Shown in pieces: positions 9,880 through 60,085 of a DNA stretch of 60,085 nt. The translations under genes and the position numbers were made by a program. The notes under the pieces are model-generated. The model made no database searches. It saw only the letters and a list, made by a program, of their open reading frames with translations, and was not told the origin of the DNA. Source of the stretch: Actinomycetota bacterium. GTDB lineage: Bacteria > Actinomycetota > Thermoleophilia > Solirubrobacterales > Solirubrobacteraceae. How positions within the stretch are numbered: the first letter of the stretch is position 1; each line of letters opens with the position of its first letter. The stretch spans positions 27,475-87,559 of the forward strand of contig VAWK01000017.1 of assembly GCA_005885515.1 (NCBI GenBank), in the 5' to 3' direction.

Positions 9880-9898
9880 GGGGGCTAGGAGGTGGCGA

Positions 9899-15612: not shown

Positions 15613-16134
15613 TCAGTCAGGCGAAGCCGCGAGCGCCTGCGCGAACGCGTCATAGGCGGCGCGGTCAAACAGCCAGAACCGCGCCTCCTCGATCGCTGGG
15701 TTCGCCGCAAGCGCCGCGCGCACGGTGTCGATCGACACGCGCGCCGCGGCCGTCAGCGGGTATCCGTACGCCCCGGTCGAGATGGCCGGGAAGGCCACCC
15801 GCCGCGCGCCACGGGCCGCCGCCAGCTCTACCGCGCGCCGGTAGCAGGAGGCCAGCAGCTCGGGTTCGCCGTGGCCGCCGCCACGCCACACGGGGCCGAC
15901 GGCATGCACGACGCACGCGGCCGCGAGCTCCCCCGCGTCCGTGACCTTGGCGTCTCCCGTCTCACACCCGCCCAGCTCGCGGCACTCCCGCAGTAGCGCG
16001 GGCCCGGCCGCACGGTGAATCGCGCCGTCAACTCCGCCACCGCCGAGCAGGCTGGAGTTGGCGGCGTTGACGATCGCGTCGGCCTCGCCGTCGCTCGTGA
16101 TGTCCCCCAGGTGCAGCGTGATCCGCGGAGCCAT
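15613..16134 (-). CDS. Macro-domain protein (O-acetyl-ADP-ribose deacetylase-like)
   Basis: This 173-residue protein is one whole macro domain: LHLGDITSDGEADAIVNAAN at the start, SSLLGGGGVDGAIHRAAG for the ribose and diphosphate loops, VVHAVGPVW, then FPAISTGAYGYPLTAAA. It matches YmdB-type enzymes that hydrolyse O-acetyl-ADP-ribose or ADP-ribosyl adducts in the cytoplasm. Its ATG lies 4 nt after the stop of the ASST gene at 16139, so it is the last gene of that operon. A macro protein in an export or sulfotransferase operon is unexpected. Confidence 0.92.
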   Translation of the reverse strand: MAPRITLHLGDITSDGEADAIVNAANSSLLGGGGVDGAIHRAAGPALLRECRELGGCETGDAKVTDAGELAAACVVHAVGPVWRGGGHGEPELLASCYRRAVELAAARGARRVAFPAISTGAYGYPLTAAARVSIDTVRAALAANPAIEEARFWLFDRAAYDAFAQALAASPD

Positions 16135-16138
16135 CGCC

Positions 16139-48308: not shown

Positions 48309-48453
48309 AGCCGACGCCCGGACTCGAACCGGGGACCCCTTCATTACGAGTCCCTTGAAAGCCATCCAGTTGGGCTTGGTAGAGCCCGATTAGCTCGAGT
48401 TGGCCAGACCGGGTCGCGTTAGATTTGCCGAGCCTGGGACATGTTTCAGGACA
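48309..48453 (-). repeat. Left att-like repeat A with tRNA 3'-half
   Basis: On the minus strand the first 43 bases read as the 3' half of a tRNA (anticodon loop ACTCGTAAT, T-loop GGTTCGAGTCC, acceptor strand CGTCGGCT). 41 of these 43 bases recur at 58310-58352. Further shared blocks follow in the same order (TTAGCTCGAGTTGGC and GGACATGTTTC), so the repeat is about 145 bp. There is no 5' half, so it is not a working tRNA gene. Confidence 0.75.
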
Positions 48454-48667
48454 CTGTTCTGCCGCTGGGCGCGGTTGCGACGTAGCGCGGCACAGCTATA
48501 AGCCGATCGTCCGCTTCTTCGCCGCCAAGCGCGCGCAACAAGCGGCGAGGGACTGAACGCTTACCCGGATTGCGCGTTTTGCAGGTAGTTCTCACGCCCG
48601 GACCGACATCCGAGTGCAAGAAAGCCTGGATGAGAACCGGGCTCGTCGAAGACGCAGGCCCTCAGCG

Positions 48668-48694
48668 GTTTCAACACAGCGGGGTTAAGGGTAT
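48668..48694 (+). promoter_or_regulatory. Sigma-B-like promoter before the secreted repeat gene
   Basis: GTTTCA (48668-48673), a 15-base spacer and GGGTAT (48689-48694) fit sigma-B-type promoters. The predicted start is about 65 nt before the ATG at 48766. Confidence 0.55.
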
Positions 48695-48765
48695 CCCTTT
48701 GTCTCGAAGAAATGCTGGTCTTCACGACGGCCGCATGGCCGTACGACTAAGGGAGGAGGCGCCCG

Positions 48766-49455
48766 ATGCGTCGGATGGTTCTCGCACTCACCATCGCTGC
48801 TGCGATCCTTGCGGTGGTCCCTGCAGCAGCGGCAGCGGACGCCACGTTCTCCGGTAGCGCCAATACCCCTGAAGGCAAGCTCCATTTGGTGGTGAATGTG
48901 AACAAGTTCACAGCCACCGCTGCGGGGACACAAGCCTCCGGAACGGCAACAGCCACCCTGACGCCGATCGGGCAGCGGCCCACAACCGTCAGCAAGAAGG
49001 TCACACTTGCAGCGTCGCGGTCGGGTACCTGCACCATCCTGACGCTGACGCTCGAAACGCTCGAACTCAACCTGCTTGGGCTAAATGTCCATCTGGACAA
49101 AGTCGTGCTCACCATTACAGGCGAACGCCACGGCGGAGTGCTGGGCAGGCTGTTCTGTTCGCTCGCAGGCGCCAAAGTCAAACCCGCACGAGTGGCGGCA
49201 GCCTCGCGCCTCACTGCAGCGATCCGCCGCACGGGCGTAGTTCGACCGATAGCCCTTGGGGCTAGCGTGCGCGCCACCACGGCCGCTGCCGGGCCTACCT
49301 GTCCCGTGCTGAATCTGCTGCTTGGTCCATTGCACTTGAATCTTTTGGGGCTCGTGGTTGACCTGAGCCAGGTCCATCTCACCATCACCGCAGAACCAGC
49401 GGGCGGTATTCTCGGCAACCTATTCTGCGGGCTCGCCAACACCAAAATCCCCTAG
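48766..49455 (+). CDS. Secreted protein with two LNLLGL-type repeats
   Basis: This 229-residue protein has a signal peptide (MRRMVLALTIAAAILAVVPA). Two similar segments follow: ILTLTLETLELNLLGLNVHL with LGRLFCSLAG, and VLNLLLGPLHLNLLGLVVDL with LGNLFCGLAN. Each has Cys at its start and in its L-F-C, so each may close one disulfide. The pattern occurs in many exported actinobacterial proteins as I recall, with no assigned role. GGGAGGAGG precedes the ATG. The sigma-B-like promoter upstream joins it to the island. Confidence 0.8.
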   Translation: MRRMVLALTIAAAILAVVPAAAAADATFSGSANTPEGKLHLVVNVNKFTATAAGTQASGTATATLTPIGQRPTTVSKKVTLAASRSGTCTILTLTLETLELNLLGLNVHLDKVVLTITGERHGGVLGRLFCSLAGAKVKPARVAAASRLTAAIRRTGVVRPIALGASVRATTAAAGPTCPVLNLLLGPLHLNLLGLVVDLSQVHLTITAEPAGGILGNLFCGLANTKIP

Positions 49456-49591
49456 AGGCGTCAACGCGTCTATCGGCGCTGGGCCCATACCGTCCGGTCC
49501 CGCTCGCGCGACGGACGTTTGACTAGTTCATGCACGCAACCGCGCCGCCGATGCAAAGAGTCGTCCGGCGCGGGCCCGCATGCCGCTTTTG

Positions 49592-49628
49592 GCAGCCCCG
49601 TATAACCGTCCCTGATGGCTGCCGTGCG
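49592..49628 (+). repeat. Copy of the MBL-fold gene leader and start codons
   Basis: 34 of 37 bases match 59435-59471, including the TATAACCG box, the ATG and the codons Met-Ala-Ala-Val-Arg. After that the copy leaves the gene sequence. It is a direct repeat 9843 bp from the intact one. Confidence 0.75.
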
Positions 49629-49793
49629 GCCGCCGGGGACCGAGCCGGGCAGGAGGGCTGGACGTCGACACCGCGGCCGACGGTCTCGTCATCGAGCTAT
49701 AGCGGCCGTCACTGGTCCCGTGCTAACGCGCGCGGGACCGCGTGTCGCGTTCTGCACGCCGGGCGGGCGGCTGACCCTTAGCAAGCCGACGCC

Positions 49794-49826
49794 CAGAATC
49801 GAACCGGAGACCCCTCACCGGGGGAG
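49794..49826 (-). repeat. tRNA-3'-like relic C
   Basis: On the minus strand it reads a T-arm-like CCGGTTCGATTCTGG and the acceptor end CGTCGGCT, related to repeats A and B but more diverged. Confidence 0.5.
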
Positions 49827-49835
49827 CCACAAGAC

Positions 49836-49884
49836 ACCCGCTGCGGAGATCCGCACGGGCTCTCCGGCAGCGGGTTTGTTTTGG
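49836..49884 (+). terminator. Rho-independent terminator
   Basis: ACCCGCTGC and GCAGCGGGT (9 bp) plus GGAGA and TCTCC form one long stem with an 11-base loop, followed by TTGTTTT. It lies between converging units: the gas vesicle operon ends at 49957 on the other strand. It may act in both directions. Confidence 0.75.
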
Positions 49885-49956
49885 CCCTCGACTCGAAGGA
49901 GCAGGTCGAGTCAGGGCAGCGCGCGTCTTGAAGGTCAGCCTCCCAAACGACCAGCG

Positions 49957-50142
49957 TCAGCGCGTCGCCTTCTTGGCGGCGCTGCGTGCTTTCCCGGCAA
50001 CGTTCTCGGCCTTTCCCTTGGCCTCTTTGGCAGCGCCGCGCCCGGCCGTGGTGGGACGACTGCTCAGCTGACCCGCCTCACGCTGGGCTCGGCCCGCTGT
50101 CGACTTGGATGCGCCTTTTACCCTCTGTAGACGATCCGCCAT
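49957..50142 (-). CDS. CsbD-like basic stress protein
   Basis: This 61-residue protein is Lys/Ala/Gly-rich (MADRLQRVKGASKSTAGRAQ, then AAKEAKGKAENVAGKARSAA), resembling the CsbD general-stress family. The ATG at 50142 has GAGGGGAG upstream. Its own sigma-B-like promoter at 50178-50202 fits, as csbD genes are sigma-B-controlled in Bacillus. It is the last gene of the gas vesicle group on this strand. Confidence 0.6.
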   Translation of the reverse strand: MADRLQRVKGASKSTAGRAQREAGQLSSRPTTAGRGAAKEAKGKAENVAGKARSAAKKATR

Positions 50143-50177
50143 GATCACTCCCCTCTCTGCTGTTTTACAAGAGAGAA

Positions 50178-50202
50178 ATACCCTATGTTCCCACGGCGAA
50201 AC
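50178..50202 (-). promoter_or_regulatory. Sigma-B-like promoter of the CsbD-like gene
   Basis: On the minus strand GTTTCG (50202-50197), a 13-base spacer and GGGTAT (50183-50178). This is the closest match in the island to the sigma-B consensus. The predicted leader is about 30 nt and includes the ribosome site. Confidence 0.65.
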
Positions 50203-50213
50203 CCACTCACAGC

Positions 50214-50447
50214 TCAGCGCGCTACGGATGCGGCCATGGCAAGCACTCGATGGATCCGATCCAGTATCTGCGCGCTCGGGTACCACGACTCATCGGCCTT
50301 CTCGAGCAGCAGATCGACATATTCCTCGACCTGCTCGTGAGTCCAGAACGCGGCCTCGACGCGCTCCATCAACTGGAGACTCGGATACCGGTCCTGCCGG
50401 ATGCGCTCCATCAGCATTGCGACATAACGTTCCTGAGCGGTTGCCAT
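50214..50447 (-). CDS. Conserved hypothetical small protein, gas vesicle neighbour
   Basis: This 77-residue acidic helical protein has an internal repeat: RYPSLQLMERVEAAF and WYPSAQILDRIHRVL share Y-P-S-X-Q and a [DE]-R-[IV]. GAAAGGAGG precedes the ATG. It lies 13 nt after the gvpK stop and so is the operon's last gas-vesicle-linked gene. Similar proteins occur in actinobacterial genomes as I recall; role unknown. Confidence 0.75.
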   Translation of the reverse strand: MATAQERYVAMLMERIRQDRYPSLQLMERVEAAFWTHEQVEEYVDLLLEKADESWYPSAQILDRIHRVLAMAASVAR

Positions 50448-50460
50448 GACACGCCTCCTT

Positions 50461-50808
50461 TCACATCAGGTTTCCAAGGGGGCCGAGGTTTAGGTTCAGA
50501 TCCTCGTCCGAGAGGCCAAATTGCTCCTTCAGCTCCTCCATGCGGTCGGCGAGCGCCATGAACGTTTTGCCGAGCCGCTCGACCTCCTCCGCGGTTAGGC
50601 TGCCCTGCGTCATGCGGTGAACCGCCTGGCGCTCCATGAGCTGACGCAGAAGCTCGATCAGCGTCATCACCAGCTGGGCGAGCCCGCGCTCGAGCTTTTC
50701 GTCATCCACATTTGCCCTCGCCCTCAGGCCGCTGCGAACGCGGTCGAAATCCGCGGCGAAAAAGTCCAGTACGCCGCGGTCGGAGAGCACCTTGTCGTGA
50801 AGGCTCAT
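50461..50808 (-). CDS. gvpK: Gas vesicle protein GvpK
   Basis: This 115-residue protein matches GvpK throughout: LAQLVMTLIELLRQLMERQA, VHRMTQGSLTAEEVERLGKT and FGLSDEDLNLNLGPLGNLM. GvpK is a minor protein needed for vesicle formation. Its ATG overlaps the previous gvpF/L stop by 4 nt (ATGA), fixing the start. Confidence 0.93.
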   Translation of the reverse strand: MSLHDKVLSDRGVLDFFAADFDRVRSGLRARANVDDEKLERGLAQLVMTLIELLRQLMERQAVHRMTQGSLTAEEVERLGKTFMALADRMEELKEQFGLSDEDLNLNLGPLGNLM

Positions 50809-51467
50809 GCGTGGGCCCTATCGCTCTGAACGAAGCTGTATGGCGGCCAGGGCCCGGTGCAGACGAGCGTCGTATCGCTCACCTCGCTATCGACGCGACC
50901 GACCTCCGCCATGAAGCCACTCACCATGCTCCTGGCAACCAGAAAAGCGCAGGCCAGAGTAAAGCTCGGCTGCGGGACGCGGCGCAGCCGGCTCGCGCGC
51001 GAGAACGGCGCGAGTCTGCGCTGAAGCTGGCGCGCCAGAGCCTCCGCGCGGGACTCGGCATCGGCACGGGCCGCGAGGTAGCTCGTGCCGCTTTGTGGCG
51101 CGCCCGTCGGCGTGTCTTCCCGCCACGCCGCGCGCACCGAGAGCTCGCATGCTCCGGCTATGCGCCGGAGAGCCGCCTCGAACTCCTCGCGCCGGCTTTC
51201 GAGCATGGCTCGCACCGCGGACTCCGACTCCAAGGTCTCACCAAAGCGCACCGGCAGGACATCATTTGCGGCCATCAATTCCTCGATCGCCCTCTCGTGC
51301 TGCCAAAGCTCCGCCTCGCCAAGGCCGGGGCGCGACGCCGCCGGGTTGTCGCTGACCAGCGCACCCAGACCGGCCGACCGAATCACTCGCAAGGTTTGAC
51401 CGCCGAGACCGATGCCTGGGTGTGGCTGCGCTTCGCCCCCACAGATCGCGTAAAGCGACACCGCCAT
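50805..51467 (-). CDS. gvpF: Gas vesicle protein GvpF/GvpL family (third copy)
   Basis: This about 220-residue protein has the family N-terminus LYAICGGEAQPHPGIG, LGALVSDNPAASRPGLGE, and DVLPVRFGETLESESAVRAM, and ends CTGPWPPYSFVQ. GvpF/L proteins form the assembly complex at the tips or with GvpA. The start is unclear: ATG at 51467, or TTG at 51473 overlapping the gvpS stop. Confidence 0.9.
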   Translation of the reverse strand: MAVSLYAICGGEAQPHPGIGLGGQTLRVIRSAGLGALVSDNPAASRPGLGEAELWQHERAIEELMAANDVLPVRFGETLESESAVRAMLESRREEFEAALRRIAGACELSVRAAWREDTPTGAPQSGTSYLAARADAESRAEALARQLQRRLAPFSRASRLRRVPQPSFTLACAFLVARSMVSGFMAEVGRVDSEVSDTTLVCTGPWPPYSFVQSDRAHA

Positions 51468-51469
51468 CG

Positions 51470-51709
51470 TCAACCGCCTTCAGGGTGGATCGGACCGCGA
51501 AGATCTCTGCCCACGGCGTCGACCGCGCCCACGATGAGCCGCAAGCTGAGATCCACCAGGTCGATGTCTGCGACCGCAAGGGTGATATCGCCCTGAACGA
51601 CGATGCCTCCCTGGAGCAGGCGATCGAGCAGGTCGATCAATGTGACATCCCTTGCCGAATGGCGCAAGACCTCTGCGCGGGGGGAAGCGACGACGGCGAC
51701 GCTACTCAT
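51470..51709 (-). CDS. gvpS: Gas vesicle protein GvpS (GvpA/J paralog)
   Basis: This 79-residue protein has the GvpA-type core TLIDLLDRLLQGGIVVQGDI and DLVDLSLRLIVGAVDAVG from residues about 23-67. It is the short GvpA-like gene found between gvpL and gvpK in Streptomyces-type clusters, where it is named gvpS. Its ATG overlaps the gvpL stop by 4 nt. Confidence 0.85.
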   Translation of the reverse strand: MSSVAVVASPRAEVLRHSARDVTLIDLLDRLLQGGIVVQGDITLAVADIDLVDLSLRLIVGAVDAVGRDLRGPIHPEGG

Positions 51710-52848
51710 CGGCCAACCTCGGTGGAGCTGTTGACGAAGTTGTACGGAGGCCACGGTCCCGTCAGCTCGAGCTCGAGCCCCTGACGAATCAAGTCGGACT
51801 GCAGACTCGCCACGACCCCGGTGAACTCGTCTGCCGAGGCGTCGTCGACGAGATAAACGCCGTTGAACAGCATTGGCTCGTCCCTGTTGGTCAGCTCGCG
51901 AGGTTGGACAGGGTTCATCTTCGCCTCGACCGCTGCCTGGGCAAGCTCAGCGTGCGCCCGTCCACAGCACTCCTCGAGCTTCGCTTCTGAGCGTCCGCGC
52001 CGGTCGGCTCGGAGTTGCTTTTGCACGAGGTAGCTAGCCCCGGAACCCCCAGCCGCCGCGTCTGAATCCCCCGCGTCGGCGCCAGCTTGCGTCGCCTCCT
52101 CGAGCTCGGCCACGAGGTACAACTTGACCCCCCACTCGGTGCGCCCTTCCAAACGATCAAGCGCATCCTCGAGGAATGCGTGTTCCCTTGCGAGCATTTC
52201 TCGCACGGAGCGCTCATCGTGGTAGATCGTGCAAAGACGCATCGGCACGAGCGCGGTCTGCTCGCGAACGCCGTCCAAGATGTGCTCGTGCCGGCGTGCG
52301 TGGCTCTCCAGCCACGCGACGTCGCTCAGACGCTCCTCCAAGGTCTCGCCTTCGAACTCGTCGAGTGAGACCGTGCTGGCAACCGCCGCGATCGATTCCC
52401 CGCGTATGAGGAAGACCTCGTGCACCCCGTCGAGACCGGTCATGGGCTCCAGCTCGGCATCGGCGCGCACTACGCCATAGACATAGCAACCGAAGTTCGT
52501 GGCGGCCTGCGACTCGGGCGCTGCGACAGCGCCTCGCTCGCGACCGGCGTCGCGGGGTGGGTTTCCGTGAGGGCTGGCGGACGGGCCCTGCACCTCCCCG
52601 CCACGGTCGGATCCCTGCCCCGAGGTCACCCCCGCGCGAGCCGGGCGCGACGGGTCATGCGATCCCCGATCGGCGAGCTCCAGCGCGGCGAGATCGAGAA
52701 GCTTGTCGGCGATCGCCTCGGCGAGTAGCGCGCGGACCTTTGTGCGCGCTTCCAGCCGTGCCTCACGGACGATCTCCGCGAGGTCGGTCATCGCCGCCTC
52801 GTCGATGCTGCGACGGAGGCGCTCGAGCGTGTCGCGCTCGACGGTCAT
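51706..52848 (-). CDS. gvpL: Gas vesicle protein GvpL/GvpF with N-terminal extension
   Basis: Residues about 120-380 are the GvpF/L domain: NFGCYVYGVVRADAELEPM, RHEHILDGVREQTALVPMRL, MLFNGVYLVDDASADEFTGV and LTGPWPPYNFVNSSTEVGR. Residues 1-110 are extra: a helical start (LERLRRSIDEAAMTDLAEIV), then a Gly/Pro/Ser linker. The extension resembles a GvpN/GvpV-free fusion of a short helical module, so this copy may bridge partners. Overlaps with gvpJ and gvpS are 4 nt each. Confidence 0.9.
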   Translation of the reverse strand: MTVERDTLERLRRSIDEAAMTDLAEIVREARLEARTKVRALLAEAIADKLLDLAALELADRGSHDPSRPARAGVTSGQGSDRGGEVQGPSASPHGNPPRDAGRERGAVAAPESQAATNFGCYVYGVVRADAELEPMTGLDGVHEVFLIRGESIAAVASTVSLDEFEGETLEERLSDVAWLESHARRHEHILDGVREQTALVPMRLCTIYHDERSVREMLAREHAFLEDALDRLEGRTEWGVKLYLVAELEEATQAGADAGDSDAAAGGSGASYLVQKQLRADRRGRSEAKLEECCGRAHAELAQAAVEAKMNPVQPRELTNRDEPMLFNGVYLVDDASADEFTGVVASLQSDLIRQGLELELTGPWPPYNFVNSSTEVGR

Positions 52849-53318
52849 TTACGCTTGCGCCCGGGCGATCTGCGGACGCTCTCAACCGCGGTGTGCTGGG
52901 CCTGCTTGCCTTTCTGGGTCTCGGTCTCCTCGAAGACCTCGACGCGATCGCGGCTGGCAGGCTGCTCGGCGCCGGTGCTCAGCATCCGTTGCTCCAGCCG
53001 CTCCAGGCGTGAGCGAAGCTCGTCGTTCTCCCTCACCCGCTCCTCTGCGTCGCTTGTCAGAGTTGGGTCGCTCTCCCACCAGTTGATGCCCATCTCTTTG
53101 GCGCGGTCGACCGATGCGACGAGAAGCCGGATCTTGATTGTAAGAAGCTCGATGTCGAGCAGATTCACCTGAATGTCACCCGCGATGACGATCCCCTTGT
53201 CGAGCACCCGCTCCAAGATGTCGGCCAGATTTGCCGGTCCGCCGCCGTGCGGGGCCAGGTCCGAGCGGACAATTCCGTGAGGGGCCGGGCGGGCTCTGAC
53301 GTAGCCGCGATCGTTCAT
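52845..53318 (-). CDS. gvpJ: Gas vesicle protein GvpJ (GvpA paralog)
   Basis: This 157-residue protein has the GvpA-like core NLADILERVLDKGIVIAGDI and LLDIELLTIKIRLLVASVDR at residues about 30-72, followed by INWWESDPTL, a mark of GvpJ. The C-terminal about 75 residues are charged and coiled-coil-like (ENDELRSRLERLEQRMLS). GvpJ is a minor shell or nucleation protein. Both ends overlap neighbours by 4 nt. Confidence 0.93.
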   Translation of the reverse strand: MNDRGYVRARPAPHGIVRSDLAPHGGGPANLADILERVLDKGIVIAGDIQVNLLDIELLTIKIRLLVASVDRAKEMGINWWESDPTLTSDAEERVRENDELRSRLERLEQRMLSTGAEQPASRDRVEVFEETETQKGKQAQHTAVESVRRSPGRKRK

Positions 53319-53761
53319 TGCTGGCCCCCGTCGACCTGTCCGCGGTGGTATCTACGGGTGCGGTGGTACCGCAGGACGTCGCCCTTGTTGTCGAGCACGG
53401 TCTCGTAGTCGCCGAGCACGTCCGTCGTGTTCGGGATTCGCGCCATCTCCACGACCTGGACCGTCGCCACCCAGTTGTTGTGATCTCGCTCAATCCCGAG
53501 AACGCTCTCGACGCGGCGTCCGAGCAGCTCGGATAGGGCCGCGCGCGCGCGCAACACGGCGTCTGCTGCCGATAGCCCGTTTCGTGAAGCGGACGGCCGC
53601 CTCGCCGTCGAAGAGCGGCCGCCTGACGAGCGGGCGCGCGTCGACTGCGTCTGCGCGCTCCGCGCTGTCTTTGGCTGTGTCGAAGCCGCTTTTTTGCGCG
53701 GTCTGCTCGCGCTGCGGCCTTTCGTTCGCCCTCCGCTGGTGCGGCGCGTCTCAGCCATCAT
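53315..53761 (-). CDS. gvpO: Gas vesicle protein GvpO
   Basis: This 148-residue protein has the GvpO domain in its second half: LLGRRVESVLGIERDHNNWV and VQVVEMARIPNTTDVLGDYE with VLRYHRTRRYHRGQ. The first about 60 residues are a basic Ser/Arg/Lys-rich tail. The start is the first of two adjacent ATGs at 53761 behind GGGAGG, overlapping gvpG. GvpO is a required accessory protein in actinobacterial clusters. Confidence 0.9.
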   Translation of the reverse strand: MMAETRRTSGGRTKGRSASRPRKKAASTQPKTARSAQTQSTRARSSGGRSSTARRPSASRNGLSAADAVLRARAALSELLGRRVESVLGIERDHNNWVATVQVVEMARIPNTTDVLGDYETVLDNKGDVLRYHRTRRYHRGQVDGGQQ

Positions 53762-54038
53762 CGCCCTCCCAACCCTGCGTCGCCTCTTCTTCTGCACGGC
53801 GCTCTCGAGCTGCGGCCATGTGTCTCAGCAAGTCGTCGGCGTGCGTCCCGTAGGTCTCGTCACTCACCAGGCCGGCGTCGTGGTCGAGCTCCAGCTGTAG
53901 AAGCTCACGCCGGATGCGCGACTCGTCATAGAGCTGGCGTTCCGCCTCCTCGGCGACCTGCTCGACGACCCATGCGGCACCCCGGACCGGCGCCAGAGGA
54001 AGAGTTACCAAGGAGGTGAACAGGCCCACCACAGTCAC
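53751..54038 (-). CDS. gvpG: Gas vesicle protein GvpG
   Basis: This 95-residue protein has the family pattern LFTSLVTLPLAPVRGAAWVV and EQVAEEAERQLYDESRIRRE, LLQLELDHDAGLVSDETY. GvpG is a small helical protein acting with GvpF/L in assembly. Its ATG overlaps gvpF by 4 nt. Confidence 0.93.
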   Translation of the reverse strand: MTVVGLFTSLVTLPLAPVRGAAWVVEQVAEEAERQLYDESRIRRELLQLELDHDAGLVSDETYGTHADDLLRHMAAARERRAEEEATQGWEGDDG

Positions 54039-54784
54039 CCGTGCGCGGGCAGCTCGACAAAGCTGTACGGCGGCAGAGGTCCCGTGTACTTAAAGGTCAG
54101 GCGCCCGGCGTTTTGGCGTCCAAGTGCGTCCACGGCCTGGTCAAACGCCGGTATCTGCGCGTCCTCTACCAGAAAAGAGACGTTGGCCGCAACATGCTCG
54201 TGATCGGGCTCCCCCACCTGAACGGCGACGGCGAGCGGCTCGAGGGCGTCGACGATGGCGGATAGATCGACGATGGCCGCCTGCTCGACGGCCCGAGCGA
54301 CCTTCTGGCCAAGCTCGATGCGCTCGTAGTACAAAGCGTCGGCGGGGCGACCACGCAGCGCGGCGCTCAGCGCGGCGATGTCGGAGTGCGCCTCCACGAT
54401 CTCCTTCATGAGCGCGTCCTCGTCATAGACGGCGCGCAGTCGCAGCTCCCCCTTGCCATCGACTTCGCGCAGCTGGAGGAGGAGCTCGTCGCGGTATTCC
54501 TCTAGGAGCTCGCGGCGCACGGCATCCTCATCTGGCATGACCACGCCGAATCGCATCGGCAACACGACGCCCTGAGCGCGCGCGCGGCCGAGCACGCGAG
54601 CATGGGTCAGCAGCTCCTCGCGCCCGGCCTGAATGTCACCCTCCGGCGCGTCACTGACGATCGCCGCGAGCTGCCCATCCTCGATCGCGTGCAGGCGCCG
54701 GCGGCGGATTCCGGTCCCGCGCAGCGCCGAGGCTGTTCTTGGCGTGACGCCGTACACGTACTTGGGCTTGGCTTGTGTGGTCAT
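54035..54784 (-). CDS. gvpF: Gas vesicle protein GvpF
   Basis: This 249-residue protein is a full GvpF/L: YVYGVTPRTASALRGTGI at the start, VLPMRFGVVMPDEDAVRREL in the middle, and the C-terminal YTGPLPPYSFVEL. It follows gvpA by about 26 nt, the usual A-F-G order. GvpF binds GvpA and starts vesicle assembly. Confidence 0.93.
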   Translation of the reverse strand: MTTQAKPKYVYGVTPRTASALRGTGIRRRRLHAIEDGQLAAIVSDAPEGDIQAGREELLTHARVLGRARAQGVVLPMRFGVVMPDEDAVRRELLEEYRDELLLQLREVDGKGELRLRAVYDEDALMKEIVEAHSDIAALSAALRGRPADALYYERIELGQKVARAVEQAAIVDLSAIVDALEPLAVAVQVGEPDHEHVAANVSFLVEDAQIPAFDQAVDALGRQNAGRLTFKYTGPLPPYSFVELPAHG

Positions 54785-54810
54785 GGTGCCGGCCCCTTGG
54801 GCGCTTCGCC

Positions 54811-55239
54811 TTATTTGCTTCGCCTGCCTGCACCCGCGCGGCTTCGGGAGCCTTCGCGGCTCTTCTCGTCATCGTCGGAGGAGCCCTCGTCATCGTCGGA
54901 GGAGCCGAAGAGCGACTCCTTGGCCCCCTCGAGCACGCCTCGCGCCTTGCTTTGCGAGCCATCTTCGGTGATGTCCTGCATGAGCTGCGGCAGCCCCTCG
55001 CTTTCCGAGCCTTGGAGCTCGAGACGGTTGACTGCCTCGGCGAACCGCAGGTACGTGTCGACGCTGGCGATCACGATGCGCGCATCGACGGTCAGTAGCT
55101 CGATGCCGACGAGCGAGACGCGCAGGAAGATGTCGATCACGAGACCCTTGTCGAGGATCACGTCGATGACCTCGTAGAGGCCGCCTGAGCTCGACCGTTG
55201 TACGTATGCACTCCCGGGCCGCTGCACTGAGGTTGCCAT
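54811..55239 (-). CDS. gvpA: Gas vesicle structural protein GvpA with acidic tail
   Basis: Residues 18-75 are the GvpA core: [40 protein letters not shown] and [17 protein letters not shown], which forms the ribbed vesicle wall. The 142-residue length is about twice the core. The tail ends in two copies of GSSDDDE made by a perfect 21-bp DNA repeat (54865-54885 and 54886-54906), then a basic end ([10 protein letters not shown]). The ATG at 55239 lies behind AAGGAGGAGGG. Confidence 0.95.
54865..54906 (-). repeat. Perfect 21-bp tandem repeat in the gvpA tail
   Basis: CTCGTCATCGTCGGAGGAGC starts both copies, at 54865 and 54886. Each codes G-S-S-D-D-D-E. Being in frame, copy number could vary without breaking the gene. 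Confidence 0.85.
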
Positions 55240-55288
55240 GATGTATCCGCCCTCCTCCTTGGACTGGTCCTTTTCGGGACTGCTCCTA

Positions 55289-55909
55289 CTACCCGTCTTC
55301 GTCGCCGCGCGAACCGTCGTCGCCTGCCGACGCCAGAAGCTCCTCATATACGTCCGGATTGAGCAACTCGGCGTCGGCCTTGAAGCGACGCAGCTCCTCC
55401 TCTACGCGCCGGTCTGCGATGTGAAGCATTAGACGTGCCGCCTCACCGAGACCTTCGGGCACGGCGTCGATCGTCACCTCGATTCGCGTAAGCCGCTCGC
55501 CGAGCGGGTGAAACGTGACGAGACCGGCGCTGTCGGATCCCTCGGTTGAGCGCCACGCGAAACTCTCCTGGTCACGCTCGTCTATCACCTCGGCGCTCCA
55601 GGAACGGGCCCGGAGTCCGTCGAGCATCCCGTTGAGCTCGTCGCCGTCGCGTTCGACCTCAGTGAGCCGGTGGGTGCCTTCCGGCAGGTGCCTGAGCTCC
55701 ATCCACTGCTCCCAGGCGATCTCGGGCGGCACGGCGACATCGATCGACTGCTGGATCGGCAGCCGGTGTGCTCGCTCGATCACGCCGTCGATGCCTCTTT
55801 CCCCGGCCCTCGTCAGCGCTTTTCCTGCCCGGCGCGAGGCGGCCACTGCGGCACGTTTGGCGAGGGCGCCCGAGATGCGAAGGGTCCCCCGCGCGACACG
55901 CTTTCCAAT
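55289..55909 (-). CDS. SRPBCC (START/Bet v1-like) protein in the gas vesicle operon
   Basis: Residues about 60-190 are an SRPBCC fold: [60 protein letters not shown] and [28 protein letters not shown] site stands before an ATT at 55909, right behind the stop of the previous gene; the first normal start is a GTG at 55846. It lies just upstream of gvpA. SRPBCC proteins occur in some actinobacterial gas vesicle clusters, but their task is not known to me; lipid or hydrophobic-ligand binding is possible. Confidence 0.72.
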
Positions 55910-55910
55910 C

Positions 55911-56567
55911 TCACCCTCCCGTGGAGGCCGCCTTGCTCTTGATCTCACCCTCGGCGCGGCGTCCCGTCGACGCCGCCTTGCTCTTGATCGACTGCGCGGC
56001 CGCCTTCGTCCGTCGCTTGCCTGCGCCCTGGGGAGCTCGACTCTGAGCCGGGTGCTTTCGCTGGCGAGCTGACTGCTTGCCGCCTCCCTTGCGGCCTTCG
56101 CTTGTCGTCCGGCGTGCCGTAGCCGCCTTTGGCGTCGATCCTTTCGTCCGACCCTTGGGCGAATTGCGCGGGCGATCGCCCTGCTGGCGTTTGCCCTGTC
56201 CGCTTTGCCGACGCTCATCGGGCGAGTCAGCGCTCTCGCCGCCAGAGCTGGAGTCAGCGCCCTCGCCGGCCGAGCTGCTGGCACGGGCGCGGGCCCGCGG
56301 AGCGCGCTGAGACCTCGAGCGCCCCGGTTCCTCCTCGGACTCCCCGGATGCAGAGCCGGTCGCGCCAGTGTCCGGCTCAGCTGCCTCCTCGCCTTCCTCT
56401 GATGCGGAGCCCGTCGCGCCAGAGTCCGGCTCGTCGTCTGCCGGCAGGCCTAGGTAGCCGGGCGTAGATGCGCGGCCGTGGCGCTTTGCGGCCTTGGCAT
56501 GAGTGCGCCTGACGGGGCTTTCGCGCTCCTGCGGCCTGTCTTCGGTCTGTGTCGCGCCCCGGGCCAT
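55911..56567 (-). CDS. Low-complexity charged protein of the gas vesicle cluster
   Basis: From the ATG at 56567 this is 218 residues of Ser, Arg, Lys, Glu, Gly and Ala. The acidic middle has repeats such as PDSGATGSASEEGEEAAE and PDTGATGSASGESEEEPG; the C-terminal half is basic and ends in two copies of IKSKAAST. It is probably disordered. It lies 4 nt after the gene at 56572 and overlaps none, so it is in the operon. No family recognised. Confidence 0.6.
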   Translation of the reverse strand: MARGATQTEDRPQERESPVRRTHAKAAKRHGRASTPGYLGLPADDEPDSGATGSASEEGEEAAEPDTGATGSASGESEEEPGRSRSQRAPRARARASSSAGEGADSSSGGESADSPDERRQSGQGKRQQGDRPRNSPKGRTKGSTPKAATARRTTSEGRKGGGKQSARQRKHPAQSRAPQGAGKRRTKAAAQSIKSKAASTGRRAEGEIKSKAASTGG

Positions 56568-56571
56568 CGGG

Positions 56572-57237
56572 CTAGCTGAGTGCCTTTCCGATGTCCTCGG
56601 CTTTCTGCCGCGCGACGCGCACCTCGCCGGCGAGCTTGCCGAACTGCTTGCCCGCCGCGTTGATGCTTCGCGCGACGTCAGAGAAGTGGGCCTGGCGACG
56701 CGGGATGGTGACGCCAAGCACCTTCTTGGGCCGTTTGCCGATCATGCGCTCGAGCAGGACTCCGCCGGCAACGCCCGCGATCGCGCCCAGCGCGCCGGTG
56801 GCTACGCCAACCCCGATCGTCTTGCCGTCGCTGGCGGTGTCACGAACGCCATCCGCGGCGGACGAGACTGCCTCGGAGGCGCGCTCGCGCATGCCGGCGC
56901 CCCCCGATCCGTTGCGAAGTCCGGAGCGTGCGGACCCTTGAGCCCTGCCTCGCGTCCGGCTCGCAGTACTACCGCGAGCGCCAGAGCCGCGTTTGGCGCC
57001 GGACGCTTTGGCACCGGAGGCTTTGGCGCTCGATGTCCTTTTGGACGCGCTCGGCGAACTCGACCGCGACCCACGGGCGGCGGCCGCGGCCGATGACGCC
57101 GGGGACCCGCTCCCTTCGCCGCCATTGCTGCCAGCCCGCGACACGCCGCGGCCGGAGCCGGAAGCGGGCGCTTTGCCGTTGGATCGCTGCGAAGTCCTCC
57201 GTGACGCCGCCCCTTTGCGTTGCGTTGCCGTTGCCAT
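56572..57237 (-). CDS. Low-complexity gas vesicle cluster protein with conserved C-terminal segment
   Basis: This 221-residue protein has a Ser/Arg/Ala/Gly-rich N-terminal 115 residues. A C-terminal part follows: DGKTIGVGVATGALGAIAGV, AGGVLLERMIGKRPKKVLGV and a helical end (AAGKQFGKLAGEVRVARQKA). The Gly/Ala-rich segment is hydrophobic enough to enter or line a membrane or vesicle surface. GGAGGTTAGGAG precedes the ATG. It is the first long gene of the operon. Family not recognised with confidence; a GvpQ-like role is possible. Confidence 0.65.
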   Translation of the reverse strand: MATATQRKGAASRRTSQRSNGKAPASGSGRGVSRAGSNGGEGSGSPASSAAAAARGSRSSSPSASKRTSSAKASGAKASGAKRGSGARGSTASRTRGRAQGSARSGLRNGSGGAGMRERASEAVSSAADGVRDTASDGKTIGVGVATGALGAIAGVAGGVLLERMIGKRPKKVLGVTIPRRQAHFSDVARSINAAGKQFGKLAGEVRVARQKAEDIGKALS

Positions 57238-57401
57238 CTCCTAACCTCCCCCAACTCGGTCTCGAGCTGGTCCTTGTCAATATTTGATTTCTGCACTTAC
57301 CCGCGGAGTTCTGCCTGGAAACAGCGAGGGACTTCTGCTGCGACCGTTGCAGTTCAGGCGCCGGCCGATGCGCGCTAGCGTGTGCCGGGCGAGCCGTCAG
57401 C

Positions 57402-57509
57402 TCAGACGATGCGCCGCACCAAGCCGCCCACGCCGCGGAGCAAGCCCACGACCAAATCGCCTACTCCCCGGAGCAGATTTCCTACCGCGTTAACGATTCC
57501 TCCGAACAT
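57402..57509 (-). CDS. 35-residue repetitive amphipathic peptide
   Basis: The frame reads MFGGIVNAVGNLLRGVGDLV and VGLLRGVGGLVRRIV, with the unit [NG]LLRGVG[DG]LV twice. It has a strong GGAGAGGAG site before the ATG and its own sigma-B-like promoter. Hydrophobic and small residues alternate with Arg and Asp on one face. It is upstream of the gas vesicle operon on the same strand. No named family; a surface peptide for vesicles or a membrane-active peptide are both possible. Confidence 0.65.
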   Translation of the reverse strand: MFGGIVNAVGNLLRGVGDLVVGLLRGVGGLVRRIV

Positions 57510-57553
57510 GCCGGCTCCTCTCCTCAGCTCCTCTCCTTACGCCCATGCGACAG

Positions 57554-57606
57554 GTACCCGCCCCCAACGCCAGGCAACCGCGGTTGCGCTGCCTCAACCG
57601 GGGTAC
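57554..57606. promoter_or_regulatory. Divergent pair of sigma-B-like promoters sharing a palindromic -35
   Basis: The palindrome GCAACCGCGGTTGC (57574-57587) gives GTTGC on both strands. To the right GGGTAC is at 57601-57606 after 12 bases; to the left GGGTAC (minus strand, 57559-57554) lies after 13 bases. Each points to a small gene with a good ribosome site, at 57631 and 57509. The geometry suits a shared, coupled pair of stress promoters. Confidence 0.65.
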
Positions 57607-57630
57607 AAGCACCTCGAAGGAGGTGTGCAG

Positions 57631-57786
57631 GTGAAGACAGCAGCCATCACGTTTGGCCGGGCAGCAGTAGAACGCCTCTCCGGCGATCGGCCGTCGACCC
57701 TCAGAGCACTGGCGGCAGCGACGATCACCGGCGGAGCGACGGCAGCCGTTACATATCGCCTACTGCGCAGCAAGAGCGACGAGTAG
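57631..57786 (+). CDS. 51-residue small protein, divergent from the gas vesicle operon
   Basis: The frame reads VKTAAITFGRAAVERLSGDR, then PSTLRALAAATITGGATAAV and TYRLLRSKSDE. A hydrophobic Ala/Gly/Thr helix ends in Tyr-Arg-Leu-Leu-Arg, a pattern I recall in small proteins beside actinobacterial gas vesicle genes. AAGGAGGT precedes the GTG. Role unknown; possibly membrane-associated. Confidence 0.7.
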   Translation: MKTAAITFGRAAVERLSGDRPSTLRALAAATITGGATAAVTYRLLRSKSDE

Positions 57787-57917
57787 TTCGCTGGAGCGGG
57801 CTCGCGCTGATTTCGACGCTCGTGCTGAGATATGACGAAGACGACACGGCGGACCGGTTCAGCAGCAAGCCGTGGTTTGCGTTCCTCGACCCCGCGCTGC
57901 GCCGCGCTCACTTGATG

Positions 57918-57942
57918 GTTAGCGCAATGCCCCTGCGGGTAG
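57918..57942 (+). promoter_or_regulatory. Sigma-B-like promoter before the 73-residue gene
   Basis: GTTAGC (57918-57923), a 13-base spacer and GGGTAG (57937-57942), about 28 bases before the ATG at 57971. Confidence 0.5.
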
Positions 57943-57970
57943 CCAATCACCGCCAGAGAGAAGCCGCAAG

Positions 57971-58192
57971 ATGGCGCGCAACGATCAAATGCAACGGGAT
58001 GGCGACGCGGAGCGCTACCGAGTCGCGGCCGAGGATGCGCTGGCGCAACTCGACTGGGCAATCGGATACCTGCACGGCATCCGCAAGACCGAGATCTCCA
58101 AGGCGCTCGCGAGCAATCGCTACTACATCCGACGCTCGCTGATGCGGAAGCCGGACGTCTCGGACCCCAGTGAGAAGACGGGGGAAACGTAG
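57971..58192 (+). CDS. Small conserved hypothetical protein
   Basis: This 73-residue protein has the core RYRVAAEDALAQLDWAIGYL, HGIRKTEISKALASNRYYIR, which I recognise as a recurrent actinobacterial small protein without an assigned role. A purine-rich AGAGAGAAG precedes the ATG. The core is helical and basic at its end, so nucleic-acid binding is possible. Confidence 0.72.
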   Translation: MARNDQMQRDGDAERYRVAAEDALAQLDWAIGYLHGIRKTEISKALASNRYYIRRSLMRKPDVSDPSEKTGET

Positions 58193-58309
58193 AGCACGAT
58201 CACTGAGCAGCAGTACGGGGACGGGGCAGGCACGCCACACGCTTCCATGGCGCTTTCATGCGCCCCCCAAGCCGGCGACTGCCAGGCCCAGAAACCGCTC
58301 AGAAAGTCA

Positions 58310-58455
58310 AGCCGACGCCCGGACTCGAACCGAGGACCCCTTCATTTCGAGTGGCTTGATTGGAGGCTGCTTTGGCTTGGTGGAGCCAAATTGGGTCGGG
58401 TTAGCTCGAGTTGGCTCGGCTCATAATTGCCGAGTCGGGGACATGTTTCGGGACA
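58310..58455 (-). repeat. Right att-like repeat B with tRNA 3'-half
   Basis: The first 43 bases match repeat A in 41 positions and keep T-loop GGTTCGAGTCC and acceptor end CGTCGGCT on the minus strand. TTAGCTCGAGTTGGC and GGACATGTTTC follow as in repeat A. Orientation is the same, 10001 bp apart. Confidence 0.75.
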
Positions 58456-58483
58456 TGGTTTTCAGCAAGCCGCGCCCGGCGCT

Positions 58484-58897
58484 TCAAGGCAAAAGCTCGA
58501 ACGCTGGACGGTGGCGAGGTGTGATGGCAGTGAAATGCCGTCGGTCAAGGGTCACGATGATCGGCGCGTCGAGGCGCTCGGCAAGAGCGATCACCGATGC
58601 ATCGGTCCCTCCGATCGGGAAGTCCGCGTACCGGTCCACGAGCTCGGCCATACGCGTGAAGTCCTCTCTACTCGGCCCTTCGACATCGAGTCCGCCGATT
58701 CCCCGCAGGAACTGACTCTCGGCCGTCGCGCCCAGTCGCCGACCCACGAAATATGTCGCCTCGGCAACGACGAGCGCCGGCACAATCAGATGAAGATCTG
58801 AGCGCTCGAGCACCGCGCGCGAGCGACGATGGTCCTCATCGTCGGCGTCGGCTGCGGCGTATAGCGGACCTGCGTCAACTACGGCCAGGGCGGTCAT
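58484..58897 (-). CDS. vapC: PIN-domain toxin (VapC family)
   Basis: This 137-residue PIN domain has the four acidic positions: VVDAGPLYAA (D8), ALVVAEATYF (E46), GGTDASVIALAERL and ITLDRRHF-like IVTLDRRHFTA. PIN toxins cut RNA and are blocked by the VapB partner. Its start overlaps the VapB stop by 23 nt, so the pair is co-translated. Confidence 0.9.
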   Translation of the reverse strand: MTALAVVDAGPLYAAADADDEDHRRSRAVLERSDLHLIVPALVVAEATYFVGRRLGATAESQFLRGIGGLDVEGPSREDFTRMAELVDRYADFPIGGTDASVIALAERLDAPIIVTLDRRHFTAITPRHRPAFELLP

Positions 58898-59120
58898 TCC
58901 ACTCCTGCTCGAGGAGCGCCTCCATGTCGCGAGCGGTTGTATGGCGCCCACTGCGACCGAGATCCGCGAATGGAAGCGCACGGGGCCCGTCGCCGCTCAA
59001 GCCGAGATGCTCTGCGAGCGCAGTGCGCGCGACCTCGGATGCCGAGCAATGCCGCCGCCGTGCCTCGCGATCGAGCGCCCTCGCGAGTTCGTCCGTAAGA
59101 GATATTGTGGTGCGCTTCAT
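58875..59120 (-). CDS. vapB: Ribbon-helix-helix antitoxin (VapB family)
   Basis: This 81-residue protein has the RHH domain MKRTTISLTDELARALDREA and CSASEVARTALAEHLGL, then a toxin-binding tail (TARDMEALLEQEWNDRPG). The AT-rich bases just upstream (59121-59140) repeat TATG-type motifs and probably hold the operator. The pair lies in the right flank of the island and may help keep it. Confidence 0.87.
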   Translation of the reverse strand: MKRTTISLTDELARALDREARRRHCSASEVARTALAEHLGLSGDGPRALPFADLGRSGRHTTARDMEALLEQEWNDRPGRS

Positions 59121-59204
59121 ACGTACATACTATCATAAATCCTCAACGGAAGGCCTTTACTGGCCCATGTCGTGAGGGCACCGCTTCCTGCTCGGATGTC
59201 CCAT

Positions 59205-59240
59205 AGCGGACGCCCGACTCGAACCGGGAACCCATTACGC
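59205..59240 (-). repeat. tRNA-3'-like relic D
   Basis: On the minus strand it has the T-arm CCCGGTTCGAGTCGGGCG and a changed acceptor end TCCGCT. It is diverged from repeats A and B and lies 9411 bp from relic C. Confidence 0.45.
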
Positions 59241-59434
59241 GTGGCTTGAGATGGGCCCAGCCTCGATGCACTAGCTCGACAGCCAGTGACATCACCGCGA
59301 AGCACCTGTCAATAACCGAGCACCTCCGCGACGTGCGCCGGCGAGCGTTGAGAGATTCGTTTTCGCGCGCGGGACCGAGGGCATGATGCCCGCCGATCCG
59401 AGCGTCGTCGGGCGCGGTCCTGGATGCAGCCGGT

Positions 59435-59471
59435 GCAGCCCGGTATAACCGCCCTTGATGGCTGCCGTGCG
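59435..59471 (+). repeat. Leader and start of the MBL-fold gene, source of the copy at 49592
   Basis: 34 of 37 bases match 49592-49628. It includes the TATAACCG element and the first codons of the gene. Confidence 0.75.
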
Positions 59472-60085
59472 TCTTCGCTTTCTCGGCTGCGGCGACGCGT
59501 TCGCGAGCGGCGGGCGTCTTCACACCTGTTTTCACCTCGAGGGCGGCAGCGAGCCGATGCTGATCGACTGTGGTGCCACTGCACTGGTAGCACTCAAGCG
59601 CGAGCGGATCGACCCGGCCTCGATCGGCTGCATCGCGCTGTCACACCTGCACGGAGATCACTTCGCTGGTCTTCCCTGGCTGATCCTTGACGGACAGTTC
59701 GCCGACCGTAGTCGACCACTTCTGATCGGCGGGCCGCCGGGAACCGAGCGGCGCTTCGGGCAGGTCTTCGAGGCACTCTACCCAGGCGCTGCGTCGGTGA
59801 AGCGAGGATTCGACATCCGAATCGTTGAGCTCGCTGAGCAAGCGCCATCCGAGCTGGGGCCGGCCGTCGTGACGCCTTTCGAGGTGGCACACTCGAGTGG
59901 CACGCCGTCCTACGGGCTTCGCGTCGAGTATGGCGGCAAGTTGATCGCCTACTCCGGCGATACCGAGTGGACCGAGTCGCTGGCCGATGTGGCACGGGGA
60001 GCCGACCTGTTTGTCTGCGAGTGCAACTATTTCGATAAGCAGGTGCCCGGTCACCTCGACTACCGAACGCTCGCCACTCACCGCC
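59458..60085 (+). CDS. MBL-fold metallohydrolase (RNase Z/ElaC-like), 3' end outside window
   Basis: The visible 209 residues have AAVRLRFLGCGDAFASGGR at the start, the metal motif ALSHLHGDHFAGL (H63, H65, D67, H68), FEVAHSSGTPSYGLRVEYGG with the third metal His, and IAYSGDTEWTES with the bridging Asp. This is the order of RNase Z-like metallo-beta-lactamase proteins; the true substrate is unknown. TATAACC about 15 bases before the ATG may be the -10 of a nearly leaderless message. The C-terminal His lies beyond the window. Confidence 0.88.
   Translation, partial: MAAVRLRFLGCGDAFASGGRLHTCFHLEGGSEPMLIDCGATALVALKRERIDPASIGCIALSHLHGDHFAGLPWLILDGQFADRSRPLLIGGPPGTERRFGQVFEALYPGAASVKRGFDIRIVELAEQAPSELGPAVVTPFEVAHSSGTPSYGLRVEYGGKLIAYSGDTEWTESLADVARGADLFVCECNYFDKQVPGHLDYRTLATHR

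What the first reader, a model, noticed from the sequence alone, without database searches (positions are those of the whole stretch)
48309..59471. Gas vesicle island bracketed by tRNA-3' direct repeats
A complete gas vesicle operon lies between two about 145-bp direct repeats (48309 and 58310, 10001 bp apart). Both hold the 3' half of a tRNA with T-loop and acceptor end. Two more diverged tRNA-3' relics (49794, 59205) and a duplicated gene start (49592, 59435) lie in the same flanks. tRNA 3' ends are classical integrase targets, so these look like attL and attR of one or nested insertions. No integrase gene is in the window.
Basis: partly seen in the sequence, partly recalled or inferred. Interest (0 to 1): 0.75.

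Follow-up and report, generated by a model that had tools for sequence, protein, structure and literature searches.

The report
Gas-vesicle genes in tRNA insertion-scar array
An actinobacterium carries its buoyancy-organelle (gas vesicle) genes inside a row of tRNA fragments that look like scars left by successive insertions of small mobile DNA elements, which is a new example of a well-known kind of genomic island.

Summary
Four partial copies (R1-R4) of the 3' half of tRNA-Thr(CGT), all in one orientation, lie at 48309, 49784, 58310 and 59205 around a gas vesicle cluster. R1 is 43/43 identical to the genome's intact tRNA-Thr(CGT), which is on another contig; R1 with its arm finds, genome-wide, only these four relics and two tRNA-Thr genes. 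R1 and R3 are each followed by the same attachment arm (GGGACA-type repeats at +85 and +97). That arm marks the far end of elements of one tyrosine-integrase clade in Solirubrobacterales: 29 of 37 clade loci have the integrase beside an intact tRNA, and all 7 with a matching tRNA-3' repeat in the 10-kb flank show the arm. So R1 and R3 are attR-type scars, probably of successive insertions (tandem accretion), not the attL/attR pair of one element. The gas vesicle genes fit between R2 and R3. No integrase or relaxase is recognisable on C39 or C67. No gas vesicle gene was found in 22 of 24 genus genomes; the other carrier has them elsewhere. Best reading: integrase-less (CIME-like) cargo island. 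That gas vesicles arrived with such an element is inferred, not shown. New member of a known kind; moderate interest.

The parts
48309..48351 (-). R1: tRNA-Thr(CGT) 3'-half relic (anticodon stem to 3' end), attR-type core
   Evidence: 43/43 identical to intact tRNA at C67:1180-1252
48352..48453 (.). Arm of R1 with GGGACA at +85 and AGGACA at +97
   Evidence: same geometry as integrase-clade elements
48766..49455 (+). Gene for a 229-aa protein, no Pfam match
49545..49779 (+). Remnant of an MBL-fold gene (start, an internal piece, end and 3' flank only)
   Evidence: three blocks of 76-81% identity to the copy starting at 59458
49784..49815 (-). R2: degenerate tRNA-Thr(CGT) 3' relic, no arm
   Evidence: 29/32; no GGGACA within 150 nt
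49958..50142 (-). CsbD-like protein gene (below Pfam cut-off)
50217..50447 (-). 77-aa gas-vesicle-cluster gene, conserved beside gvpK in relatives
   Evidence: 39-56% identity in three clusters
50464..50808 (-). gvpK
   Evidence: PF05121
50808..51473 (-). gvpF/L family
   Evidence: PF06386
51473..51754 (-). gvpA/J/S-type small gene
   Evidence: PF00741
51706..52848 (-). gvpL
   Evidence: PF06386, NF045778 below cut-off
52845..53318 (-). gvpJ/A-type
   Evidence: PF00741
53315..53797 (-). gvpO
   Evidence: PF05800
53751..54038 (-). gvpG
   Evidence: PF05120
54035..54784 (-). gvpF
   Evidence: PF06386
54811..55347 (-). gvpA
   Evidence: NF006872 above cut-off
55289..56284 (-). SRPBCC/polyketide-cyclase-type gas-vesicle-cluster gene
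   Evidence: PF10604; homologues in relatives' clusters
56572..57237 (-). Unknown gas-vesicle-cluster gene
   Evidence: homologues in L281 and L284
57971..58192 (+). 73-aa gene conserved beside gas vesicle genes (last gene before R3)
   Evidence: 69% in G015, 59% in G100
58310..58353 (-). R3: tRNA-Thr(CGT) 3'-half relic
   Evidence: 42/44
58354..58455 (.). Arm of R3 with GGGACA at +85 and +97
58484..58915 (-). PIN-domain toxin-like gene
   Evidence: PF01850
58894..59136 (-). Overlapping small gene, antitoxin by position only
   Evidence: no family match
59205..59243 (-). R4: degenerate tRNA-Thr(CGT) 3' relic
   Evidence: gapped match, score 26
59458..60085 (+). MBL-fold gene, open to the window end
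   Evidence: PF12706/PF00753

Best explanation
The region is an integration hot spot on the 3' side of tRNA-Thr(CGT). Small elements with a tyrosine integrase inserted one after another into the tRNA, crossing over at the anticodon stem-loop. Each insertion rebuilt an intact tRNA at its near end and left a 3'-half scar plus its own attachment arm at its far end (R1 and R3; R2 and R4 are worn scars). The gas vesicle cluster is the content of the stretch R2-R3 and was most likely brought as cargo by one of these insertions, whose integrase and arm have since been lost, leaving a CIME-like island. Shown: the scars, the arms of R1 and R3, the matching integrase clade in relatives, the variable 3' side. 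Inferred: that the gas vesicle genes themselves came in this way, the order of events, and that C67 continues C39.
For: The arm pair GGGACA-N6-[AG]GGACA occurs only at R1 and R3 in the window and 0 times in 141 kb (both strands summed) of other DNA of this genome. In the integrase clade 29 of 37 loci have an intact tRNA 14-247 bp upstream (24 of 32 without the five query sequences). Of the 29, 7 show a same-tRNA repeat of 41-44 nt starting at tRNA nt 30-33 within the 10-kb flank, and in 7 of 7 a repeat has TGTCCC about 100 nt before it, in 6 with a second copy 12 nt off. On the 3' side of tRNA-Thr(CGT) in G043, G001 and G057, 4 of 5 relics end within one base of each other; G057 has an integrase of another kind beside its relic. 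5' side conserved, 3' side not. Gas vesicle match in 2 of 24 genus genomes. Cluster-edge genes conserved in other clusters lie 0.1-0.4 kb inside R3 and R2.
Against: No integrase or relaxase match on C39 or C67 better than E = 0.02. R2 and R4 have no arm, and the flank left of R3 lacks the sequence that follows int-adjacent tRNAs (that sequence may partly be a terminator). R1, outermost and so oldest in simple accretion, is the best preserved. No integrase-clade locus carries gas vesicle genes (0 of 80, 10-kb flanks at most). G121 has a homologous cluster on contigs without a Thr relic. G026 and G121 show no relic beside their tRNA-Thr(CGT) in the stretch seen.
Confidence: 0.62

Rival explanations
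1. The scars are genuine integration scars, but the gas vesicle cluster entered the array by another route (homologous recombination or another element), because such accessory arrays tolerate any insert.
For: R2 lacks an arm and R3 lacks a recognisable attL-type left flank; no integrase-clade locus with gas vesicle genes in 80; G121 carries a homologous cluster on contigs without Thr relics.
Against: The cluster fills R2-R3 with only a few hundred bases to spare at either side, and its outermost genes are conserved cluster genes.
Confidence: 0.25
2. A segmental duplication of one block (relic + arm + about 1.1-1.3 kb + MBL gene) made R1 and R3, and the gas vesicle cluster was caught between the copies.
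For: MBL remnant 49545-49779 and MBL gene at 59458 lie at similar distances from R1 and R3 (repeat starts 1.28 and 1.13 kb away).
Against: Between relic and MBL the two blocks share only the arm, at 71% identity over 105 columns.
Confidence: 0.1
3. The relics are ordinary decayed tRNA gene copies or an assembly artefact.
For: The genome is a 79-contig assembly of 92% completeness, and C39 has a 15-N gap just past the window.
Against: The better-preserved relics stop at the anticodon stem, and R1 and R3 carry arms; the same layout occurs in a single-contig genome, Conexibacter sp. S30A1. No N in the window.
Confidence: 0.03

Closest known systems
ssrA genomic islands of Dehalococcoides (vcr-GI and others; PMC3146451, passages read)
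   Same: Tandem islands on the 3' side of a tRNA-like gene, each bounded by a 3'-end repeat, only some with integration modules; the authors suggest cis-mobilizable elements and accretion.
   Different: Serine recombinase (CcrB-like) and ssrA there; tyrosine integrase and tRNAs here; reductive dehalogenases there, gas vesicles here.
CIME / accretion arrays of ICEs and IMEs (PMC5704250, passages read)
   Same: Element without integration and transfer genes between att sites, stacked at one target.
   Different: Retention of working attL/attR is not shown here; an attL-type flank was not recognised.
IMEs with tyrosine integrase at tRNA genes
   Same: Clade members L209 and L222 have the integrase next to a tRNA and a TrwC (MobF) relaxase, plus a small HTH gene that I read as excisionase-like (no family search).
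   Different: PMC5704250 (2017) states that no known canonical IME has a MobF relaxase; the window locus itself has neither gene.
Actinobacterial gas vesicle clusters (Streptomyces type, recalled)
   Same: GvpA, F/L, G, J/S, K, O; no GvpN among the proteins scanned.
   Different: Placed inside a tRNA scar array; several accessory genes without a family match.

Membership tests
tRNA-targeted integrative element (tyrosine integrase) | Direct repeat of tRNA 3' part at the element boundary | tested here: met
   R1 43/43, R3 42/44 to tRNA-Thr(CGT)
tRNA-targeted integrative element (tyrosine integrase) | Intact tRNA on the same DNA at the other boundary | tested here: inconclusive
   Intact tRNA is 1.2 kb from the end of another contig, C67; join to C39 not shown
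tRNA-targeted integrative element (tyrosine integrase) | Integrase gene beside the tRNA | tested here: not met
   None recognised on C39 or C67; present in relatives
Attachment-site type of integrase clade A3 | tRNA 3' half up to the anticodon stem, then GGGACA-type arm pair about 85 and 97 nt on | tested here: met
   R1 and R3 against 7 of 7 clade elements with a repeat (one of the 7 has a single hexamer); R2 and R4 do not show it
CIME (cis-mobilizable element) | Lacks integrase and transfer genes | tested here: met
   (integrase, TrwC relaxase, excisionase queries only)
CIME (cis-mobilizable element) | Retains working attL and attR | tested here: inconclusive
   attR-type arms present; attL-type flank not recognised left of R3; function not testable
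MobF integrative mobilizable element | TrwC/MobF relaxase | tested here: not met
   On C39/C67 only one TrwC match, E = 0.025, at window 9870-10007; present in L209, L222
Gas vesicle gene cluster | GvpA plus F/L, G, J, K | tested here: met
Gas vesicle gene cluster | Makes gas vesicles | not testable with these tools
   needs culture and microscopy

The most novel reading that the evidence does not exclude
A clade of tyrosine integrases in Solirubrobacterales has spread over at least nine tRNA isoacceptors (Thr CGT/TGT/GGT, Lys CTT/TTT, Arg ACG/TCT, Met-type CAT, Gly CCC) while keeping the crossover point at the anticodon and a fixed arm layout. Some of its elements are IMEs with a MobF relaxase, and the family moves whole organelle clusters, here gas vesicles, as cargo between tRNA sites.
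Probability: 0.4. Interest if true: 0.6.

Novelty: new member of a known kind. Interest (0 to 1): 0.42.

Why it matters
Gas vesicle clusters are patchy even within this genus (2 of 24 genomes). That they move horizontally is long suspected (recalled); here is a scar array and an integrase clade that could be the vehicle. The arm plus tRNA-half signature gives a simple way to find decayed islands in this group where no integrase is left. If confirmed, the MobF-bearing clade members would extend the IME types listed in the 2017 review (PMC5704250).

Tried and rejected
A pattern scan of viral contigs with T-arm plus GGGACATGTTTC gave one hit, inside a phage gene that by eye looks like a terminase: taken as chance. 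A genome-contig scan with GvpF confirmed nothing. MBL and the 483-aa glycosyltransferase as conserved flank markers failed: at most 36% and 32% identity in 7 relatives. A pass of 32 tRNA 3' halves over the first gas vesicle loci of relatives (12 stretches, 7 other genomes) found one relic, Thr(CGT) in G003:C63, 8.4 kb from its gvpA. The wider pass over 23 stretches (15 other genomes) added a 28-nt Leu(CAG) relic 1.6 kb from an intact tRNA-Leu in G372, and a Lys-like match in G121 that lies in repetitive coding DNA and was dropped. No arm was found in these 23 stretches. These counts are too small to claim that gas vesicle clusters go with tRNA relics. Arm and gas vesicle genes co-occur in 3 of the 4 arm-bearing genomes among the 61, but on different contigs in G015 and G023, so I did not use this. 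The motif after int-adjacent tRNAs (AAAGCCCTGCAAAT) fits C67's tRNA flank (14.0; random 99.9% 8.2) but also other tRNAs such as His (17.1), so it is probably partly a terminator. Three integrase queries gave weak matches (E 0.02-0.36) at window 47385-47525, in the frame of the glycosyltransferase gene: taken as chance. Of the 80 loci I left 14 (L267-L280) out of the tRNA count; most are distant (26-39%), but L269 (55%), L278 (80%, a fragment) and L279 (48%) are not.
Full report
1. What is there. The window is C39:27475-87559 of a 2.69-Mb, 79-contig genome, 92.4% complete. It shares a family with G025, whose single contig has the length of Conexibacter sp. S30A1, so I place it in Solirubrobacterales. 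Four pieces match the 3' part of one tRNA, tRNA-Thr(CGT), whose intact gene is at C67:1180-1252. R1 48309-48351 is 43/43 identical; R3 58310-58353 is 42 of 44; R2 49784-49815 is 29 of 32; R4 59205-59243 matches with gaps. All have the same orientation. Local scores are 43, 40, 26 and 26, against at most 15 elsewhere in the window and at most 17 for the 43-nt part in 60 Markov sequences of 12 kb. A genome-wide search with R1, its arm and short flanks (181 bases) gave six places: the four relics, tRNA-Thr(CGT) and tRNA-Thr(GGT). So the repeats are real and not scattered.

2. The arm. R1 and R3 share about 100 bp beyond the tRNA part at 71-74% identity. Counted from the relic end, GGGACA lies at +85 in both, with a second GGGACA-type hexamer at +97; R2 and R4 have none. 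This pair occurs at these two places only in the window, and 0 times in 141 kb (both strands summed) of other sequence of this genome. The R3 arm with only a few bases of the tRNA part matched 11 of 146 family genomes, own included. In the 14 stretches fetched from the 10 other genomes I count 20 arm sites. By my reading of the printed contexts, 17 of them follow a tRNA 3' half that stops at the anticodon loop; G130:6060, G015:C393:103 and G023 do not. The tRNA differs between sites: Thr, Arg and Met/Ile types, read by eye. G104 has four such sites in a row and the single-contig genome G025 three.

3. The integrase. In G096:C64 and G120:C6 an arm-bearing relic is paired with an intact copy of the same tRNA 6.6-6.9 kb away, with a tyrosine integrase starting 61 and 146 bp from that tRNA and reading away from it. 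Five such integrases were aligned; the other four are 60-74% identical to the G096 one. A scan of genome contigs with these five sequences found 108 relatives and kept 80 loci, of which I examined 66. Of the 37 at 57% identity or more (my cut), 29 have an intact tRNA 14-247 bp upstream; of the other 8 some are cut-off matches, but L221 and L225 are not. Five of the 37 are the query sequences, so independently it is 24 of 32. In 7 of the 29 a repeat of the same tRNA's 3' part (41-44 nt, from tRNA nt 30-33, 89-100% identical) is found within the 10-kb flank; for the other 22 none was seen there. In all 7 a repeat has TGTCCC about 100 nt before it, in 6 with a second copy 12 nt away; L201 has a further repeat without it. 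Two of the 7 (L201, L222) are query sequences. Of 29 loci below 57% identity, 2 have a tRNA and 1 a repeat, without TGTCCC. The window's R1 and R3 have this geometry, so I take them as scars of this integrase clade (confidence about 0.9). Among the ten Phage_integrase matches of this genome I found no clade member: the best is 40% identical, at tRNA-Leu(TAG) on C70. No integrase, TrwC or excisionase match on C39 or C67 is better than E = 0.02. Of ten proteins scanned from five clade elements, two are TrwC relaxases (L209, L222), others AbiEii (L202), an MMPL transporter (L201), a PIN gene (L207) and IS110-type transposase pieces (L209); three had no match. None of the 80 loci carries gas vesicle genes.

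4. The hot spot. In relatives the genes on the 5' side of tRNA-Thr(CGT) are shared with C67 and with each other. On the 3' side no gene pair of 100 aa or more was shared between the seven relatives compared, except that in G035 the tRNA is flipped; G050 has almost no 3' side on its contig. Against C39 itself there were a few scattered 3'-side matches to window genes at 12.5-23 kb (27-53% identity; G043, G014, G035, G001, G121), none near R1-R4. Relics on the 3' side are present in G043 (three), G001 and G057 (one each); 4 of these 5 end within one base of each other, at the base where R1 ends or the one before. G001 has another tRNA-Thr piece about 22 kb farther, on the other strand. G057 has a different tyrosine integrase beside its relic. 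G026 and G121 show no relic in the stretch seen.

5. Anatomy of the window array. From left to right: R1 and arm; a 229-aa gene; an MBL remnant 49545-49779; R2; the gas vesicle cluster; R3 and arm; a PIN gene with a small overlapping gene; R4; an MBL gene that continues past the window. Homology between the MBL remnant and the intact copy's 3' flank ends 4 bases before R2. The gas vesicle cluster (50217-58192) fills R2-R3: its outermost genes, the 77-aa gene beside gvpK and the 73-aa gene 117 bases from R3, are found with gas vesicle genes in other genomes. So R2-R3 (8.5 kb) is the tightest unit, and R1-R3 (10.0 kb) the unit with recognisable arms. G+C is 66.2% in R1-R3 against 70.1% left of it.

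6. Presence in relatives. Gas vesicle proteins were found in 8 of 61 family genomes (GvpL/F), 2 of 24 genus genomes (PF00741; 2 of 11 among the most complete) and 31 of 399 class genomes (GvpF at E<=1e-20), own genome included each time; many of these genomes are incomplete. The nearest GvpF copies are 51-52% identical, in G121 (same genus) and G430 (another family). G121's cluster has the same gene order with GvpA 85% identical over 111 aa. It lies on two contigs without a Thr relic, ending about 0.5 kb from the 5' side of an intact tRNA-Met-type(CAT) gene. Its own tRNA-Thr(CGT) is on another contig. So the cluster sits at different places in two genus members, as a mobile cluster would, though G121 gives no sign of tRNA insertion for it.

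7. Mechanism. Standard tRNA insertion (general knowledge) leaves an intact tRNA at one end and a 3'-half scar plus the arm at the far end. Repeated insertion into the rebuilt tRNA stacks scars on the 3' side, which is what is seen. I infer that the gas vesicle genes are cargo of one insertion that has lost its integrase (CIME-like). Against this: R2 has no arm, the flank left of R3 has no recognisable attL-type sequence, and R1 is better preserved than R2 and R4, which simple accretion order does not predict. Insertion into an older scar, or deletion at R2, could explain this but was not shown.

8. Known or new. Tandem scars beside tRNA-like genes with integrase-less islands are known: ssrA islands of Dehalococcoides (PMC3146451, passages) and CIME accretion (PMC5704250, passages). 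Searches for gas vesicle + genomic island + tRNA + integrase (10 papers), gas vesicle + horizontal gene transfer + Actinobacteria (12 of 23 listed), Solirubrobacter + gas vesicle and Thermoleophilia + integrative + integrase + tRNA gave no paper whose title or start of abstract describes this locus or clade; I saw listings only. PMC5704250 says that no known canonical IME had a MobF relaxase in 2017; one search lists five papers with IME, MobF and Actinobacteria, of which I read passages of PMC5704250 and PMC8190616 (the latter on plasmids), so I do not claim that MobF IMEs are unreported. Verdict: new member of a known kind, interest 0.42.

Noticed in passing
L209 (VRUE01000071.1) about 175-9560 and L222 (JANWIP010000006.1) about 10001-16450: Integrase-clade elements at tRNA-Thr(CGT) and tRNA-Arg(TCT) with a TrwC (MobF) relaxase and an excisionase-like small gene, about 9.3 and 6.4 kb from integrase start to scar: look like MobF IMEs.
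   Followed up: partly
L166/L167/L177 (Conexibacter sp. S30A1, C1:1524.9-1606 kb): Three tRNA-Thr(TGT)-type scars with arms in one orientation and the clade integrase beside the intact tRNA-Thr(TGT), in a single-contig genome, spanning about 81 kb.
   Followed up: partly
L101 (G014:C42:20000-39999) 10648-13312: Split tRNA-Thr(CGT): one copy joins a 3' half to a different 5' half, a second complete tRNA follows 2.5 kb on, then an old 5' half; looks like an element that brings its own tRNA part.
   Followed up: no
L296 (G121:C68) 1-4308: Homologous gas vesicle cluster of the same genus ends beside the 5' side of an intact tRNA-Met-type(CAT) gene, a target type of the integrase clade.
   Followed up: partly
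L137 (G003:C63) 10253-10350: tRNA-Thr(CGT) relic of 45 nt, 8.4 kb from gvpA, next to a piece that looks by eye like another tRNA 3' end on the other strand.
   Followed up: no
L288 (G372:C95) 2427-2454 and 4062-4145: 28-nt relic of tRNA-Leu(CAG) on the 3' side of the intact gene, on the contig of another gas vesicle cluster (GvpF at 11669-12391).
   Followed up: no
L178 (G000:C70:30000-45000) 3271-4783: 448-aa tyrosine integrase 86 bp downstream of tRNA-Leu(TAG) in the window's own genome, 40% identical to the clade; G114 also has an integrase (403 aa) beside its tRNA-Leu(TAG).
   Followed up: no
window 12031-12268: Two divergent tRNA-Ser genes (GCT and TGA) 57 bp apart.
   Followed up: no
C39:87560 (just right of the window): 15-N scaffold gap interrupts the MBL gene; the gene's 3' end follows before the contig ends at 88470.
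   Followed up: partly
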